62,866 nucleotides of DNA from Spirochaetota bacterium (GTDB lineage Bacteria; Spirochaetota; UBA4802; JAFGJZ01), in NCBI GenBank assembly GCA_027858855.1, contig JAQIBV010000034.1, forward strand, positions 1-62,866, written 5' to 3'. The position numbers and the translations under genes are program-made. Below are positions 184 to 8,499 of the stretch, piece after piece. Positions within the stretch are counted from its first letter, which is position 1, and every line of letters begins with the position of its first letter. Below the pieces are notes generated by a model. The model worked only from the letters and a program-made list of their open reading frames with translations, did no database searches and was not told the DNA's origin.

Positions 184-800
184 TAACCAGACGGCGTTTG
201 AAGTAACGCGTACTTTCCTATGCGGTTAATTCTATTAGTAGAGTTGTAGGCCTGCGATTTTAGAGTGCGTTAGCTTCTGGCGAATACAAGTATGTGTTGA
301 AAGTACACGAATAACTCAGATGACCAAAATGTCGTCGATATAGTTCGGTTACGTCAGTCCTCGGAACTGAGGATAGTAATGATACTATGAAACGAATTTA
401 ATTTGCTTTATCGCAGAAGGAAGAAACATTATGATTTAAAATAATTTTCTAAATTAAATTGACAGTCACACCCATAACAGGAATTTCATCAGTGAAGAGT
501 ACTGTAGTGGAGAGCATAAATGTTATAAGTACGACCAAGTATTTCATTCTATCCTCCGTAATGAGCTGGTCGTTCACAAGCTGACTGCACTGGTAGCTCA
601 CTACATTCGCTGCTCGTGCATGCGTCCTTCTCGCACATGCGACCTAAGACATACTGCATTTTATATACAGTACAAATAAGGGTTATTTGCCAGAGAAATC
701 CCCTGGCACCCGCAGGATTTTTGTGAAACAAAAACCTACAAGGGCGTAGTACTGTGATTAATTAAAATTTATACTTATCATATTGATGAGCATATAGAGT
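184..800. other. Gene-free stretch after the IS110 remnant
   Basis: I see no credible gene here. The only open frames are short and of unlikely composition. The one feature noted is AGTCACACCCATA at 464-476, the exact reverse complement of 13 bases at 7913-7925 that begin a small inverted-repeat element. The stretch may be IS-end debris. Confidence 0.4.
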
Positions 801-832: not shown

Positions 833-847
833 CTTGACGCTGTCAAG
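833..847. promoter_or_regulatory. Predicted TetR operator in front of the tetR gene
   Basis: CTTGACGCTGTCAAG is a 15-bp palindrome with one mismatch. It matches two perfect copies (4880-4894 and 4919-4933) in front of the divergent-promoter operon. It lies 22 bp before the ATG at 870, and its TTGACG could serve as a -35 box. That placement predicts autorepression. Confidence 0.65.
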
Positions 848-869
848 ATTGTGTGTATTTATATCATTT

Positions 870-1499
870 ATGCTAGCTAAAAATAAAAAAAATACCAGTT
901 ATCATCATGGCGACTTAAAAGAAACATTGATCAATCAATCACTTTCAATTATTGACAAAGAAGGGCTTGGTGGTTTAACTTTGAGAAAAGCAGCCCGTTT
1001 GGCTGGAGTTAGTCACGCGGCACCAGCGCATCACTTTGGAGATATGAAAGGTTTGTTGGCCGCTATTGCAACTAACGGATTCGTATTGCTAACCACGCAG
1101 ATGGTAAATTCAATTGATCAATTAAAGGAAAATAATCCTCTTTATAAATTCAAAACAATCGGATTAGCTTACATAGAATTTGCGCTAAAAAATCCATCAT
1201 TTCTTAAGATAATGTATCACTCGGAACTTTCAGATAAAAAATCTTATCCAGAACTAATGCGGGAAAGCAAAAAGCCATTTCAATTATTAAAAAATATTAT
1301 CATGGAATGTCAAAAAGAAAAACTAATTAAAGATGGAAACCTTGATGAATCTGCCCTTTTCGCCTGGTCAACTGTACATGGTTTTTCCAATCTCGCGGTC
1401 AATGATCAACTTAAAAGTAAGGGTCTGAAAAAAAATAAAATGGAATATGCGGATAAAATCACCAACCTGCTTTACACTGGTTTAAAAATCAATAACTGA
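870..1499 (+). CDS. TetR/AcrR-family transcriptional repressor (WHG-type C-terminus)
   Basis: This is a 209-aa one-component repressor. The N-terminal helix-turn-helix spans about residues 15-62, with the recognition segment LTLRKAARLAGVSHAAPAHH. The ligand-binding half carries the TVHGF motif near residue 170, typical of TetR proteins with a WHG domain. The frame is open to 801, but the longer reading would translate the predicted operator at 833-847, so the ATG at 870 is chosen. The gene converges on the operon 1615-4808. Copies of the operator before both units make that operon the probable target. The ligand is unknown; a fatty aldehyde or acyl compound would suit the regulated enzymes (inference). 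Confidence 0.85.
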   Translation: MLAKNKKNTSYHHGDLKETLINQSLSIIDKEGLGGLTLRKAARLAGVSHAAPAHHFGDMKGLLAAIATNGFVLLTTQMVNSIDQLKENNPLYKFKTIGLAYIEFALKNPSFLKIMYHSELSDKKSYPELMRESKKPFQLLKNIIMECQKEKLIKDGNLDESALFAWSTVHGFSNLAVNDQLKSKGLKKNKMEYADKITNLLYTGLKINN

Positions 1500-1573
1500 C
1501 TTAGATTCAATTATTAAATGTAATTGAATTTTAAAAGATTAACATAAGTTAATTTTCTTAATAAATAGCGGTA

Positions 1574-1605
1574 ACTACTTATATTACCTTGATAATATAA
1601 GTAGT
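1574..1605. terminator. Bidirectional terminator-like hairpin between convergent units
   Basis: A perfect 13-bp inverted repeat (ACTACTTATATTA at 1574-1586 and its complement at 1593-1605) has a 6-nt loop. It lies between the ends of the tetR gene (1499) and the opposing operon (1615). The stem is A+T-rich and the T-runs are broken, so efficiency is uncertain. Confidence 0.55.
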
Positions 1606-1614
1606 GTAATTATT

Positions 1615-2013
1615 TTAAATTCTACTAATTGCAACTTTACCGCTATCCTTAAACAAAAACACTATAATAACCATAGTAATAATTCCTGCAAAGGATGAAA
1701 TACCCACATTTAAAACAAGATTTATCTGTTTTACATATATAGTTTTTATAAATGCCCATAGCGGCCACCATGATATCGAAACTGCTAGCACTGTATACAA
1801 ATTAATTCTTTTTGCACATAATTGATTTCCTAACACGATAAGTGCAATAATTACTAAAATAGTCATAGCTCCATCAATAAAGTTTCCAATTATAGAAAAA
1901 ATATGCATATCAATTCCGGGAATTTTAAAATTCTCTAAAAGGCATATGTTTTCAACGCTTTGAAATAAAAATCCTATAATAGACCCAATACCGACAAGTT
2001 TATATTTCTTCAT
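1615..2013 (-). CDS. Small four-helix membrane protein, unknown function
   Basis: This 132-aa protein is almost wholly hydrophobic. Probable membrane segments lie near residues 5-25, 38-62, 72-92 and 100-123, with a short basic loop (CAKRINLY) in the middle. I do not recognise the family. It is the third gene of the operon, 22 bp after the metallo-hydrolase gene, and so probably falls under the TetR operators upstream of 4808. It may sense or move the compound handled by the two enzymes; this is context only. Confidence 0.6.
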   Translation of the reverse strand: MKKYKLVGIGSIIGFLFQSVENICLLENFKIPGIDMHIFSIIGNFIDGAMTILVIIALIVLGNQLCAKRINLYTVLAVSISWWPLWAFIKTIYVKQINLVLNVGISSFAGIITMVIIVFLFKDSGKVAISRI

Positions 2014-2035
2014 TATAACTACTTCTTTGATTATT

Positions 2036-3100
2036 TTAATTTATATCAAATTTTCTTGTATCACCAATTTTCATGACCCAAAGGTTTTCATCTGAATACT
2101 TTGCTAATTTCCCTGCTTTTTTAAAACGGACAGGCGGCTCCCATATTGGCTCGTCACTTAACTTAATCGTGCCCCAATGCATTCCTATAAGATTGTTTGC
2201 ACCAAGATCTTTTCCGATTTGAACTGCTTCTTCAGGATTTGTATGAGATATCATTAAAGCCTTACGTGGAGCGTATGCTCCAATTGGGACAAATGCATAG
2301 TCAAAGCCTGAAAACAACTTGCCAATTTTTTTGAATATTGTTTTCGAGTAACCAGTATCACCTGCAAAATATAATTTAACAGCTTCTGTAGTAATAGCCC
2401 AGGATCCCCACAGTGTATTGTTTTTATTTGATGTACTTCTGCCAGAATCATGCAACGCAGGTAATAGTGTAAATGTTATGTTATCAACTTTTGTTTTTGA
2501 CCACCAATCTAACTCCTGAATATTCTTATATCCATACTTCTTGAATAATTTACCAATACCAAGTGGTACGATCACCATTATCTTTTCTTTTCCCGGTAAT
2601 GCTTCAATAGTCTGTTCATCTAAATGATCATAATGATCATGCGAAATAATTATTACATCAATAGCCGGTAAGTTTTCAATACTAATCCCGGACTTAACAA
2701 ATCTTTTTGGTCCTCGAATATAAGGACTCGCGTATTCTGTAAGATAGGGGTCTGTTAGTATTTTTTTCCCATTAAAAATGATTAGAAATGCAGAATGCCC
2801 CAGCCATGTAATCATATTTGAACTTTTAATTAATTTTATTTTTTTTAATACTTCTTGTTCTGGCACAACATGGTTCTCTTGCACATCTGGTAAAATAATA
2901 GAATCAAATACTCTACGTGTATAAAAGGTAAAACCCGGCTTTCTACCTGGAGTGATTGGAAAATTTCGATAACCATTATTTAAGTGATGCTTTGGTGTTC
3001 CCATTACCCATATTCCTTTTGTAGATGAACAGCTACACGAACTTAGTAAGAGAAGTAAAAACATTATTATCATAAGTACTTTGTTGCTAATAACTATCAC
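2036..3100 (-). CDS. Lipoprotein metallo-beta-lactamase-fold hydrolase, NAPE-PLD/RomA-like
   Basis: This is a 354-aa enzyme with a lipoprotein signal peptide (hydrophobic run followed by LLSSCSCSS). The metal site is clear: SHDHYDHLD (H154, H156, D158, H159), a later GDTGYS aspartate, and GMHWGT near the C-terminus. The ITWLGHSAFLI entry strand is typical of N-acyl-phosphatidylethanolamine phospholipase D-like and UlaG-like hydrolases. The start is taken as GTG at 3100, which has AAAGGAG 8 bp upstream; a longer ATG frame to 3124 lacks a ribosome site. The gene follows the ALDH-like gene by 1 bp. Cleavage of an N-acyl or phospholipid-type bond at the cell envelope is a family-based guess. Confidence 0.8.
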   Translation of the reverse strand: MIVISNKVLMIIMFLLLLLSSCSCSSTKGIWVMGTPKHHLNNGYRNFPITPGRKPGFTFYTRRVFDSIILPDVQENHVVPEQEVLKKIKLIKSSNMITWLGHSAFLIIFNGKKILTDPYLTEYASPYIRGPKRFVKSGISIENLPAIDVIIISHDHYDHLDEQTIEALPGKEKIMVIVPLGIGKLFKKYGYKNIQELDWWSKTKVDNITFTLLPALHDSGRSTSNKNNTLWGSWAITTEAVKLYFAGDTGYSKTIFKKIGKLFSGFDYAFVPIGAYAPRKALMISHTNPEEAVQIGKDLGANNLIGMHWGTIKLSDEPIWEPPVRFKKAGKLAKYSDENLWVMKIGDTRKFDIN

Positions 3101-3101
3101 T

Positions 3102-4808
3102 TTATATCTCCTTTGGCGTTGCATTTAGTTTTATAATGTTTTTTATAATTTTGTGTTCTGCATTTTTGGTCATAAACTTCATTGATTTTAGAAATTTAAA
3201 AAGTCTCCATAATGAAAAACTTGCATTTAAATATGTTAAATTTTTAGCAAAACCAGCATATCCGGATAAAACCCAGGGATCCAATCCTTCGGCTTTAAAG
3301 GGGCCCTTAATTACTGACTTCTGAATACCTTTCAAATTAAAAAGATTACAAATTACCCCTTTACCACTCTGTATATTAGCAGAATGATTTCCCGGAAATG
3401 CTCCCCATGGAGTAACGCCCAAGAAAAAAGCCATAGCTGCCCAAATATTAATACCGATTGTCCCATACCGTAAATTCTTAATTGCTTGTTGAAATGCTTT
3501 ATTATAAAGATCATCTTTGAGTGAATCGGGGTGAACTAGTATCATTGCTGCAAGATTACCCCATACAGTTTCATTTAAAAATGAAACTGTATTTCTAACA
3601 TAATCTGAAATATCATCACCCGGAATAGAAACTTCACCCATTATTGGACAATATGGCTCTGAATTAAAAATCATTTCATCCTTGTTCTGCCAGTCCAATC
3701 CTGGAATAAATGTCCAAGGGAGATGGCCGGACTTTTCTTCTCCCAATTTTTCAGCATTAGTGTAAGCATCCATAAACTGTGAATATACCATTTCGGCATT
3801 TGGGTAGTATGAGTAATTTGCCGGTCTACTTGTTAGATAATCTTTTAGCATTTTTAGAAACTGATTTTTTTGTGTCCATTCATCATGCATAACTAAAAGA
3901 CGCGGAGTAATACAATTAAAACTACAATTGTTTACAAACATATTTGCAACATGTAAAACCTGAAGATATAATTCATCTATAGACCATTTGCCCGGCATAA
4001 TAATAATTGGAGTGATATTCCCAAGTTCAGCTGAAAAAGGGCGTTTATTGATTACTTTAATTGATTTATTATCAGTATTTTTCAGGTTCAGCCCATAAAC
4101 AATCTGTTCATATGTTTTGTCTGAACCAGTTAAGTGAAGTGCATCAATATATTTATGCGTAGTAAGATATTTACTTGTTTCAGTATCTCCATTGATAAAT
4201 AGTATATAATTCATTTCTATTAATGGTTGAAATATTTCTTCTAATATACTGGAAAGATATTCATTTACCGGATTAACCTTAACAACTATAGTCTGACTCT
4301 GTTGAAACATGTAGTTCAATATATCTGCAATTATTAAAAATGAATGATTACCAGCAGCCAGAATCAAAGTAAGATTGCCAGCTTCATTTGCTGAATATAC
4401 TGATTCCTGACAACTATCATCTGATAAGTATATTTCCGCACTTACCTCTTTGTAAAATGTTTTATCAGATTTTAAACGCGGTAATACCGTAAGAATATTT
4501 CCTTTTGACTCAGGAATTTTAGGAGCTCCATACCTAATGCTTTCTTTTAATGATAGTAGTTGCATGTCAAACTGGCGTAATATTATATTTGCACACATCC
4601 ACTCTTCTCCTTGCAAGTCACTTCCTTTGCTATATTGCTTAGCAGCACAACTCAAAAGAACCCAATCACCCATTCTTCTAACAAAATTTTTACGTATTCT
4701 TTTCAAAAATGGGTATTTTCTCGTTAAAGATTCATTTTTCCATAAAATCTTGCTATTATTCATTATTTTTAATTCCGCATCAAATATTTGCATAGTATTA
4801 CTTTCCAT
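3102..4808 (-). CDS. Aldehyde dehydrogenase-superfamily protein
   Basis: At 568 aa it is somewhat longer than a usual ALDH (~480-500). Superfamily marks are visible but divergent: a cofactor-binding core AAGNHSFLIIADILNYMF, LHLTGSDKTYEQI in the FTGS position, AELGNITPIII in the LELGG position, and NNCSFNCITPRLLV where the catalytic cysteine belongs. The N-terminal ~90 residues have no obvious match. Expected chemistry is NAD(P)-dependent oxidation of an aldehyde or reduction of an acyl thioester. GGAGG sits 6 bp before the ATG. It is the first gene of the TetR-controlled operon, with a strong leader hairpin and two operators upstream. Confidence 0.75.
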   Translation of the reverse strand: MESNTMQIFDAELKIMNNSKILWKNESLTRKYPFLKRIRKNFVRRMGDWVLLSCAAKQYSKGSDLQGEEWMCANIILRQFDMQLLSLKESIRYGAPKIPESKGNILTVLPRLKSDKTFYKEVSAEIYLSDDSCQESVYSANEAGNLTLILAAGNHSFLIIADILNYMFQQSQTIVVKVNPVNEYLSSILEEIFQPLIEMNYILFINGDTETSKYLTTHKYIDALHLTGSDKTYEQIVYGLNLKNTDNKSIKVINKRPFSAELGNITPIIIMPGKWSIDELYLQVLHVANMFVNNCSFNCITPRLLVMHDEWTQKNQFLKMLKDYLTSRPANYSYYPNAEMVYSQFMDAYTNAEKLGEEKSGHLPWTFIPGLDWQNKDEMIFNSEPYCPIMGEVSIPGDDISDYVRNTVSFLNETVWGNLAAMILVHPDSLKDDLYNKAFQQAIKNLRYGTIGINIWAAMAFFLGVTPWGAFPGNHSANIQSGKGVICNLFNLKGIQKSVIKGPFKAEGLDPWVLSGYAGFAKNLTYLNASFSLWRLFKFLKSMKFMTKNAEHKIIKNIIKLNATPKEI

Positions 4809-4821
4809 TATACGCCTCCAG

Positions 4822-4862
4822 TTTATTTCCTCATTAGTTTTGAAAAATAATGAGGAAATAAA
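4822..4862 (-). promoter_or_regulatory. Long hairpin in the leader of the aldehyde dehydrogenase operon
   Basis: A perfect 15-bp inverted repeat (4822-4836 and 4848-4862) with an 11-nt loop lies directly before the ribosome site of the gene starting at 4808. It lacks a T-run in the minus direction, so it is more likely a 5' stabiliser or regulatory fold than a terminator. Confidence 0.5.
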
Positions 4863-4879
4863 GACTTGTAGATACTTAA

Positions 4880-4933
4880 CTTGACACTGTCAAGATAAGA
4901 AGAAGATATGGCGTGAAACTTGACAGTGTCAAG
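4880..4933 (-). promoter_or_regulatory. Tandem TetR operators on two overlapping promoters
   Basis: Two perfect palindromes occur, CTTGACACTGTCAAG at 4880-4894 and CTTGACAGTGTCAAG at 4919-4933. The second extends to 19 bp (AACTTGACAGTGTCAAGTT, 4917-4935). Their centres are 39 bp apart. On the minus strand each contains a consensus TTGACA. TATCTT follows the outer one after 18 bp and TACAAG follows the inner one after 17 bp. A repressor bound here would cover both -35 boxes. The same palindrome occurs before the tetR gene (833-847). Confidence 0.75.
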
Positions 4934-5068: not shown

Positions 5069-5735
5069 TGTCAATTTTCACGAAGTTGACCCCCTAAAAA
5101 TCGGTATCCTGACCCCTTTTCAAATACCAAAATGCACCTTCAAACTCGGAGGTATGCAATGGATAAAAGGGAGTTGGTTATGTACAAGCTTGAAGAAATA
5201 GTAAATGCCCTTTTGGAGAATACTCCAATAAAGCAAATTGCTCGTCAGCAAAAGATCTCTAAAAACACGGTAAAAAAGTACCGGAAGCATGTAGAGAAAA
5301 TATTGTCGGGCAATCCTCACCTGCTCGGTAATCTATCAATGATTATGGATGAGTTTCGAAACATGCGAAAGAAGGAACGCCATTCGGTGAACTATGGTTG
5401 GCTGGAACTTCATTCGGAAGAGATAGAAAAGCTTGCAGAAAACTGTGACAACTATGTGCGCCTGTTTCAGGTGCTGAGGGATAAAGGGTTCTCCGGCAGT
5501 TATTCATCGCTGCAAAGATATATCTCGAAATGCAATAATCTTGGGGAGAGATCTGTTTTCAGAATTGAAACAAAGCCTGGTGAAATTGCACAGGTTGACT
5601 TTGGCTCAATCGGAAAACTCTATGATGAGCTGGCCGGTACAATGGTGAAAGCCTATGTGTTTGTGATGGTATTGGGCTATTCCAGAGACGCCTACAATGA
5701 AATAGTCAGAAGTCAGGATATCCAGACCTGGTGCA
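5069..5735 (+). mobile_element. Truncated IS21-family element (left end plus part of istA)
   Basis: The left end seems to begin at TGTCAATTTTC near 5069 and holds repeated GTTGACCCCC / CCTGACCCC motifs (5084-5120), as in the terminal repeats of IS21 elements. It continues into istA and stops abruptly near 5713-5735, where unrelated G+C-richer DNA begins. No istB gene or right end follows. Confidence 0.7.
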
Positions 5736-5740
5736 GTTGA
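5159..5740 (+). pseudogene. istA: IS21 transposase IstA, 3'-truncated
   Basis: The first ~190 of about 500 residues remain. A helix-turn-helix lies at about 20-45 (IKQIARQQKISKNTVKKY), and the start of the DDE catalytic domain is seen in EIAQVDFGS. The frame ends soon after RSQDIQTW at the junction with a chorismate-mutase-like gene on the other strand. The second and third acidic residues of the catalytic triad are missing, so it cannot be active. The ATG at 5159 is preferred because GGAGG precedes it by 6-7 bp. Confidence 0.8.
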
Positions 5741-7595: not shown

Positions 7596-7735
7596 GATTT
7601 AATTATCTCCCATTTTGTTATAATTAGCAAAAACAATCAGATTTTTTCAACCGTGAACAAAAAAACAGTCATGGCTGATAATGAAGAGACCGGACATCTC
7701 CCTTGATTAATCCCCCGAAAATAACTATTATTGGC

Positions 7736-7813
7736 CTTACCCGGGGTGGCTGTTTACAGTCTGAGAGCAAACCCGTTGAACCTGATCCGGCTGAACCCGG
7801 CGTAGGGAGTGGA
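7736..7813 (+). promoter_or_regulatory. TPP riboswitch (THI box)
   Basis: The conserved pieces occur in order: ACCCGGGGTGG at 7739-7749, CTGAGAG at 7761-7767, ACCCGTTGAACCTGATCCGG at 7771-7790 and CCCGGCGTAGGGAGT at 7796-7810. These form the thi-box core that binds thiamine pyrophosphate. An AGGAG ribosome site (7844-7848) and an ATG follow at normal distance, so translational control is plausible. The downstream gene is truncated. Confidence 0.92.
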
Positions 7814-7854
7814 TTTACCGCTTATCAATTCCCCGGACATTTTAGGAGACTCTT

Positions 7855-8190: not shown

Positions 8191-8208
8191 TATTTCCATT
8201 TCCTGCAC

Positions 8209-8312
8209 GCCGAGCAGCAACGAAGTTGCGACCAGGCAGGATGCATGCCGAGCAGCAACGAAGTTGCGACCAGGCAGGACGCATGCCGAGCAGCAACGAA
8301 GTTGCGACCAGG
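8209..8312. repeat. 38-bp tandem repeat, 2.7 copies, with palindromic core
   Basis: Units begin at 8209, 8247 and 8285 and are nearly identical (one C/T difference). Each holds GCAACGAAGTTGC, a 5-bp stem with a 3-nt loop. The repeats are G+C-rich in an A+T-rich setting. They lie between the transposase remnant and the dead cyclase copy. Confidence 0.85.
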
Positions 8313-8499
8313 GTATCGCTGAGGATAGAATGAAATACTTTGCCGTACTAAAATCGCTTTATCGTGACTGCGGTACCTGTTTCAAACTTCCTGTTTCGGG
8401 TGCCGCTTATAACCTTCCTGCCTTTGGCCTGTCACATGCTATTTTTTTATGCCTTCCTGTCGTGTCAGTAATAATTTTGCTCATTTATATATTACTCTT

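What the first reader, a model, noticed from the sequence alone, without database searches (positions are those of the whole stretch)
833..4933. One palindrome links a TetR regulator to an ALDH / NAPE-PLD-like / membrane-protein operon
CTTGAC-A-C/G-TGTCAAG occurs three times: once (one mismatch) before tetR and twice, perfect, before the operon. Each operon copy contains its own TTGACA -35 box. This gives a self-contained regulon. The pairing of an ALDH-fold enzyme with a lipoprotein NAPE-PLD-like hydrolase and a small membrane protein is unusual and could be a system that releases and then oxidises a lipid-derived aldehyde or acyl-amine at the envelope.
Basis: partly seen in the sequence, partly recalled or inferred. 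Interest (0 to 1): 0.65.

Follow-up and report, generated by a model that had tools for sequence, protein, structure and literature searches.

The report
TetR-controlled aldehyde-clearing operon with NAPE-PLD-like lipoprotein
A low-GC, probably horizontally acquired gene block in which one repressor and one short palindrome, recurring beside related repressors in unrelated bacteria, appear to switch on an aldehyde-oxidising enzyme together with a membrane-anchored relative of the lipid-cutting enzyme NAPE-PLD; the wiring is well supported by comparison, the chemistry is inferred.

Summary
CTTGACASTGTCAAG occurs at 833-847 (one mismatch), 4880-4894 and 4919-4933, and nowhere else in the 3.35-Mb genome at one mismatch or fewer. 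Expected by chance: about 0.25. The same palindrome lies directly upstream of related tetR genes in five other genomes, so its role as operator is strongly supported. In one of them it separates tetR (64% identical) from a close ALDH homologue (59%). In another, two copies 40 bp apart (39 bp here) separate tetR (53%) from a different, class-3 fatty-aldehyde dehydrogenase. The lipoprotein is a NAPE-PLD relative (E 6e-59) with all metal ligands; the ALDH has the ALDH fold and catalytic residues. The cassette is 32% GC in a 40% window, its ALDH is absent from about 390 sampled phylum genomes, and an IS21 remnant and a dispersed repeat flank it. The ALDH/NAPE-PLD pair was not found at related loci, but a Vibrio plasmid pairs TetR, another ALDH and a NAPE-PLD relative. 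Best reading: derepressible lipid-aldehyde response, with cytoplasmic ALDH and envelope NAPE-PLD-like hydrolase, possibly removing aldehyde-modified PE. 'Releases then oxidises at the envelope' is only partly supported: compartments differ.

The parts
833..847 (.). Operator copy before tetR, CTTGACGCTGTCAAG (one mismatch)
   Evidence: just upstream of ATG 870, same position as in homologues L125-L127
870..1499 (+). tetR, TetR_C_33 subfamily repressor (209 aa; ORF opens at 801 but 870 is the likely start)
   Evidence: PF13305 44.3 bits, TetR_N E 2.8e-4; 64% and 53% identical homologues with the same operator
1615..2013 (-). Small hydrophobic membrane protein (132 aa), third gene of the operon, no family found
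   Evidence: Pfam and NCBIfam none, no plasmid homologue, at least 2 hydrophobic spans
2036..3124 (-). NAPE-PLD-like metallo-beta-lactamase-fold hydrolase, predicted lipoprotein (LSSC lipobox)
   Evidence: E 5.9e-59 to human NAPE-PLD 4qn9, all seven metal/catalytic residues conserved (H162 H164 D166 H167 H225 D256 H316); N-terminal hydrophobic span
3102..4808 (-). Divergent aldehyde dehydrogenase (568 aa), first gene of the operon; overlaps the next gene by 23 nt
   Evidence: ALDH fold, invariant N154, K177, E261, C299; 80 homologous loci retrieved
4822..4862 (-). 14-bp-stem hairpin in the operon's leader, just before the Shine-Dalgarno sequence
   Evidence: (-18.3 kcal/mol for the leader, z -2.8)
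4880..4894 (.). Operator copy, promoter-proximal, perfect palindrome CTTGACACTGTCAAG
4919..4933 (.). Operator copy, distal, perfect palindrome CTTGACAGTGTCAAG
   Evidence: 39 bp from the proximal copy (40 bp in L120)
4903..4932 (-). Likely operon promoter: TTGACA (inside the distal operator), 18 nt, TATCTT
   Evidence: 10 of 12 consensus matches
5132..5740 (+). Truncated IS21-family transposase next to the cassette
   Evidence: NCBIfam NF033546 E 4.7e-27, positions 9-164 of 294 only
500..780 (.). Dispersed repeat at the left border of the cassette
   Evidence: 13 matches in the genome, this one included

Best explanation
A horizontally acquired, self-regulated aldehyde-response cassette. TetR binds CTTGACANTGTCAAG sites that overlap the promoters of its own gene and of the ALDH / NAPE-PLD-like / membrane-protein operon (two sites 39 bp apart), and a lipid-derived aldehyde or acyl compound releases it. 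The cytoplasmic ALDH then oxidises free fatty or lipid aldehydes to acids. The lipoprotein, displayed on the membrane, cleaves N-modified phosphatidylethanolamine (N-acyl-PE or aldehyde-adducted PE), and the membrane protein assists. Supported by comparison: sites, TetR-site linkage, linkage to ALDH genes, operon arrangement, foreign origin. Inferred: binding, repression, ligand, substrates of ALDH and hydrolase, any role of the membrane protein.
For: Sites unique to the locus in the genome (expected 0.25). L025: tetR (64%) and ALDH (59%) divergent around the only perfect copy in that 4.2-Mb genome. L120: tetR (53%) divergent from a class-3/FALDH-type ALDH (4qgk E 7.5e-131) with two one-mismatch copies 40 bp apart. 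In the phylum sample 5 of 392 other genomes carry a perfect copy, and 3 of the 5 are directly upstream of a homologous tetR. TetRs with another recognition-helix sequence (L121-L123, GVSQAAP) have a different upstream palindrome (GTTAAC type). Two unrelated ALDH subfamilies under the same TetR/operator point to aldehyde as the common theme. NAPE-PLD relative with all ligands; human NAPE-PLD hydrolyses aldehyde-modified PE (PMC12214272). ALDH keeps the general-base Glu and the Cys, so non-acylating oxidation is expected. Genes overlap or are 22 nt apart. Independent counterpart: Fe-ADH, TetR, ALDH, NAPE-PLD-like on a Vibrio plasmid. Foreign: GC 32% vs 40%, GC3 22-29% vs 36-45% for most neighbours, ALDH in 0 of 392 other phylum genomes.
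Against: No binding, expression or enzyme data. The ALDH/NAPE-PLD pairing was not found at the 80 ALDH loci fetched or next to about 39 NAPE-PLD homologues of relatives, so the functional link of the two enzymes rests on the operon itself and one Vibrio plasmid. The best homologue (L025) is broken and IS-truncated after the ALDH, so it cannot show what followed. In L125-L127 the same type of TetR and operator control a sugar/amino-type operon (aldolase, aminotransferase, kinase, transporter), so the operator alone does not imply aldehydes. Whether this organism makes PE, N-acyl-PE or peroxidisable lipids is not known.
Confidence: 0.6

Rival explanations
1. One reading: the NAPE-PLD-like lipoprotein releases an N-acylethanolamine (or another alcohol/amine) from a phospholipid, an alcohol dehydrogenase elsewhere converts it to the aldehyde, and the ALDH oxidises that to an N-acylglycine-type acid for catabolism.
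For: The Vibrio plasmid locus holds exactly an alcohol dehydrogenase, TetR, an ALDH and a NAPE-PLD-like enzyme in a row. NAPE-PLD chemistry is known (PMC12214272); the ADH/ALDH route from N-acylethanolamine to N-acylglycine is recalled from general knowledge and was not tested here.
Against: No alcohol dehydrogenase or acyl-CoA synthetase in this operon; product and oxidase lie in different compartments (predicted lipoprotein vs no signal peptide); the related TetR/operator pairs with ALDH without any NAPE-PLD (L120).
Confidence: 0.2
2. Catabolism of an exogenous alcohol, aldehyde or alkane-type substrate, with the metallo-hydrolase acting on an ester, lactone or other precursor and not on phospholipid.
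For: Distant ALDH homologues sit next to acyl-CoA synthetases and GMC oxidoreductases, in Polaromonas in a cluster resembling alk genes (fatty acid desaturase-like, GMC oxidoreductase, CoA ligase, ALDH, OmpW). The metallo-beta-lactamase fold is catalytically versatile; related hydrolases of other function were also matched.
Against: No transporter, monooxygenase or CoA ligase here; the hydrolase is much closer to NAPE-PLD (203 bits) than to any other solved family (42 bits for the next).
Confidence: 0.15
3. The ALDH and its TetR are the functional unit; the NAPE-PLD-like and membrane-protein genes were caught downstream by recombination and have no role in the response.
For: The pairing is absent at the other ALDH loci and at relatives' NAPE-PLD loci, while TetR+ALDH+operator occurs without it in L120 (and in L025, where the downstream part is lost). 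NAPE-PLD-like genes are common in relatives (33 of 59 genomes).
Against: 23-nt overlap of ALDH and NAPE-PLD-like reading frames and similar low GC (32-34%) suggest they travelled together; Vibrio counterpart.
Confidence: 0.2

Closest known systems
N-acylphosphatidylethanolamine-hydrolysing phospholipase D (human NAPE-PLD, PDB 4qn9)
   Same: 256 residues aligned at E 5.9e-59; HxHxDH, H225, D256, H316 ligands, the LWGSW and IGAYxPR motifs
   Different: Bacterial, predicted lipoprotein with its own N-terminal 100 residues; activity and substrate unknown
ALDH superfamily; class 3 / fatty aldehyde dehydrogenases (4qgk, 5ucd, 6k0z)
   Same: Fold (TM-score to target 0.72-0.78), catalytic Cys, Glu, Asn, Lys
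   Different: About 14-16% identity; 568 aa with a C-terminal helical extension; Pfam score below cut-off; belongs to an unnamed family that elsewhere sits beside acyl-CoA synthetases
TetR_C_33 (PF13305) regulators, closest solved structure 3on2
   Same: Domain architecture and sequence (E 2.7e-27 to 3on2)
   Different: The operator CTTGACANTGTCAAG was not found in the held literature; ligand unknown
Vibrio sp. THAF190c plasmid locus (NZ_CP045340, L131)
   Same: TetR, ALDH, NAPE-PLD-like hydrolase and a small protein in one row
   Different: ALDH of the 'coniferyl aldehyde dehydrogenase' type, TetR with no detected similarity to the window's, extra iron-containing alcohol dehydrogenase, small protein unrelated

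Membership tests
TetR family repressor (PF13305 subfamily) | C-terminal ligand domain PF13305 above cut-off | tested here: met
   44.3 bits, cut-off 26.8
TetR family repressor (PF13305 subfamily) | N-terminal TetR HTH | tested here: inconclusive
   PF00440 21.0 bits, cut-off 24, but aligned without gaps through the HTH to homologues of which one tested passes (L126, 32.7 bits)
TetR family repressor (PF13305 subfamily) | Binding of the proposed operator and release by a ligand | not testable with these tools
   Comparative footprint only
NAPE-PLD | Closest sequence relative among solved structures is NAPE-PLD | tested here: met
   203 bits against 42 for the next family
NAPE-PLD | All metal/catalytic residues | tested here: met
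   H162, H164, D166, H167, H225, D256, H316 aligned to H185, H187, D189, H190, H253, D284, H343 of the human enzyme
NAPE-PLD | Hydrolysis of N-acyl-PE | not testable with these tools
   needs an assay
Aldehyde dehydrogenase superfamily | ALDH fold | tested here: met
   AlphaFold2 pLDDT 88.9; the first 50 PDB matches listed are ALDH-superfamily enzymes, E down to 4e-19
Aldehyde dehydrogenase superfamily | Catalytic Cys, general-base Glu, Asn and cofactor Lys | tested here: met
   C299, E261, N154, K177 invariant in 28 sequences
Aldehyde dehydrogenase superfamily | Pfam PF00171 above curated cut-off | tested here: not met
   21.9 bits against 23; outweighed by fold and residues for superfamily membership, not for any named subfamily
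Class 3 fatty aldehyde dehydrogenase (ALDH3A2/FALDH) | Full-length sequence relationship | tested here: not met
   Single-sequence E 0.2, profile E 2e-4 to 4qgk; the ALDH of L120 does meet it
TetR-ALDH-NAPE-PLD locus of the Vibrio type | Same ALDH subfamily and homologous TetR | tested here: not met

The most novel reading that the evidence does not exclude
A bacterial two-compartment repair system for reactive lipid aldehydes: ALDH inside, a NAPE-PLD-type lipoprotein removing aldehyde-adducted phosphatidylethanolamine in the envelope, jointly induced by an aldehyde-sensing TetR. This would be a bacterial counterpart of the clearance of aldehyde-modified PE proposed for mammalian NAPE-PLD in 2025.
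Probability: 0.25. Interest if true: 0.65.

Novelty: new variant of a known kind. Interest (0 to 1): 0.42.

Why it matters
The function of bacterial NAPE-PLD relatives in this setting is not known to this report. An operon that ties one to an aldehyde dehydrogenase under a single, sequence-defined switch gives a testable handle on substrate and inducer. The link between operator and recognition helix also gives a predictor for other members of this TetR subfamily.

Tried and rejected
Viral contigs for the ALDH: 9 pattern matches, none a relative. ALDH in 59 relatives and 393 phylum genomes: no true homologue besides the window; weak E 1e-4 hits are ordinary ALDHs. Plasmid homologues of the membrane protein: none. 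Operator in the literature: only two unrelated hits. Papers linking TetR with fatty aldehyde dehydrogenase operators, or NAPE-PLD with bacterial lipoproteins: none useful. Considered and rejected: palindrome as genome-wide repeat; palindrome as a terminator (the scan lists 832-848, but it has no proper T run and sits before tetR); ALDH as a CoA-acylating reductase (it keeps the general-base Glu); hydrolase as UPF0173 or UlaG (far weaker scores). Crude ORF clustering of neighbours of the distant ALDHs gave no conserved partner beyond small clades.
Full report
OBSERVATION. The palindrome CTTGACASTGTCAAG is present at 833-847 (one mismatch), 4880-4894 and 4919-4933. In the assembly of 3.35 Mb these are the only sites with zero or one mismatch; a composition model expects 0.006 perfect sites and 0.25 with up to one mismatch. 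The two operon sites, 39 bp apart start to start, form part of a larger inverted repeat.

ANATOMY. tetR probably starts at ATG 870: the ORF opens at 801 and would run through the operator, but homologues begin just before the YHHGDL motif and have an operator 35-61 bp upstream. On the minus strand follow ALDH (4808-3102), NAPE-PLD-like lipoprotein (3124-2036, overlapping the ALDH by 23 nt) and a 132-aa membrane protein (2013-1615, 22 nt further). The best promoter match of the operon leader is TTGACA-18-TATCTT with the -35 box inside the distal operator; the proximal operator covers the region just downstream, so a bound repressor would be expected to block it. That each copy contains TTGACA is a property of the palindrome itself on both strands. 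A 14-bp hairpin lies between the operators and the ribosome-binding site.

PROTEINS. The hydrolase aligns with human NAPE-PLD over 256 residues (E 5.9e-59) and keeps all seven ligand residues; the next best solved family scores 42 bits against 203. Its N-terminus (basic, hydrophobic, LSSC) reads as a lipoprotein signal; many homologues in related genomes have a hydrophobic, Cys-containing N-terminus as well (a simple pattern check only). The ALDH is divergent (Pfam just under cut-off), but the predicted structure (pLDDT 88.9) matches ALDHs, best a class 3 benzaldehyde dehydrogenase, and N154, K177, E261, C299 are invariant in 28 homologues. The retained Glu argues for oxidation to the acid, not CoA acylation (established ALDH knowledge).

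COMPARATIVE EVIDENCE FOR THE SWITCH. A deltaproteobacterial MAG (L025, G393) has tetR 64% identical, divergent from an ALDH 59% identical; between them lies CTTGACATTGTCAAG, the only perfect copy in that 4.2-Mb genome. That ALDH is frame-broken and truncated by an insertion, so nothing can be said about genes that followed. In G617 (L120) a tetR 53% identical is divergent from an ALDH of another subfamily, the class 3 / FALDH type (E 7.5e-131 to human FALDH), with two one-mismatch copies 40 bp apart. In the window's phylum 5 of 392 other sampled genomes carry a perfect copy; three lie directly upstream of a homologous tetR (L125, L126, L127), each with a second site of the form CTTTACANTGTAAAG 29-32 bp away (one mismatch in L125), divergent from an operon of class II aldolase, class III aminotransferase, FGGY kinase and transporter. 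TetRs with a different recognition helix (L121-L123) have different palindromes. Thus the operator follows the TetR subfamily, and the target genes vary; for the two closest TetRs (64%, 53%) the target is an ALDH both times.

ORIGIN. The cassette has 32% GC (GC3 22-29%) in a 40% window. The ALDH was found in no other genome of a 393-genome phylum sample, and the TetR is sporadic elsewhere (1 of 46 and 2 of 194 genomes including the query's own). A truncated IS21 transposase lies to the right and a dispersed repeat with 13 matches in the genome to the left. Horizontal acquisition is the simplest reading.

THE PAIRING. None of the 80 fetched ALDH loci has a NAPE-PLD homologue within the fetched stretch (some stretches are short), and of about 39 NAPE-PLD loci in relatives only one (L164) has ALDHs anywhere within the fetched stretch, some 3 kb away or more. 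One independent counterpart exists: a Vibrio plasmid with iron-containing alcohol dehydrogenase, TetR, ALDH, NAPE-PLD-like hydrolase and a small protein in one row; the ALDH and TetR there are not of the same subfamilies, so this is convergence on a theme, from a single case.

MECHANISM. Most likely: TetR represses itself and the operon; a lipid aldehyde or related acyl compound releases it; the ALDH clears aldehydes in the cytoplasm, the lipoprotein acts on N-modified PE in the envelope. Human NAPE-PLD hydrolyses several aldehyde-modified PEs, some at a rate similar to N-linoleoyl-PE (PMC12214272), which gives a chemical reason for joint control with an ALDH. Binding, repression, ligand and substrates are all untested.

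VERDICT. The regulatory observation is confirmed and strengthened. The system is a new variant of a known kind (TetR-controlled aldehyde operons) with an unusual partner enzyme and, as far as the held literature shows, an undescribed operator.

Noticed in passing
window 7732-7825 (+): A TPP riboswitch (Rfam 60.5 bits) is followed after a Shine-Dalgarno-like AGGAGA by ATG 7855 and a stop after 17 codons (MKKIIIILLLIVIPLSF): it looks like an orphaned riboswitch whose target gene has decayed.
   Followed up: partly
window 8204-8317: Three tandem copies of a 38-nt unit (TGCACGCCGAGCAGCAACGAAGTTGCGACCAGGCAGGA); the sequence just after them (8305-8349) resembles the left-border repeat at 528-572 in inverted orientation.
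   Followed up: no
window 500-780: Dispersed repeat with 13 full or partial matches in the genome, several in clusters on contigs C1 and C21; nature unknown.
   Followed up: partly
window 4822-4862: Strong 14-bp-stem hairpin in the operon leader ending just before the Shine-Dalgarno sequence; not terminator-like; L025 has only one arm-like stretch.
   Followed up: partly
L125 5497-5540, L126 6751-6797, L127 5895-5941: Paired operators of two kinds, CTTGACANTGTCAAG and CTTTACANTGTAAAG, between a related tetR and an aldolase/aminotransferase/FGGY-kinase/MFS operon: a second regulon of this TetR subfamily.
   Followed up: partly
L009, L010, L011, L012: The ~570-aa ALDH family lies next to long-chain acyl-CoA synthetases in Klebsiella, Streptomyces, Polaromonas and Sulfitobacter, in Polaromonas in an alk-like cluster; the family seems to lack a name.
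   Followed up: partly
L171 (G000:C36:68480-69211): The genome has a second, 36% identical NAPE-PLD-like gene, without an ALDH or palindrome beside it.
   Followed up: partly
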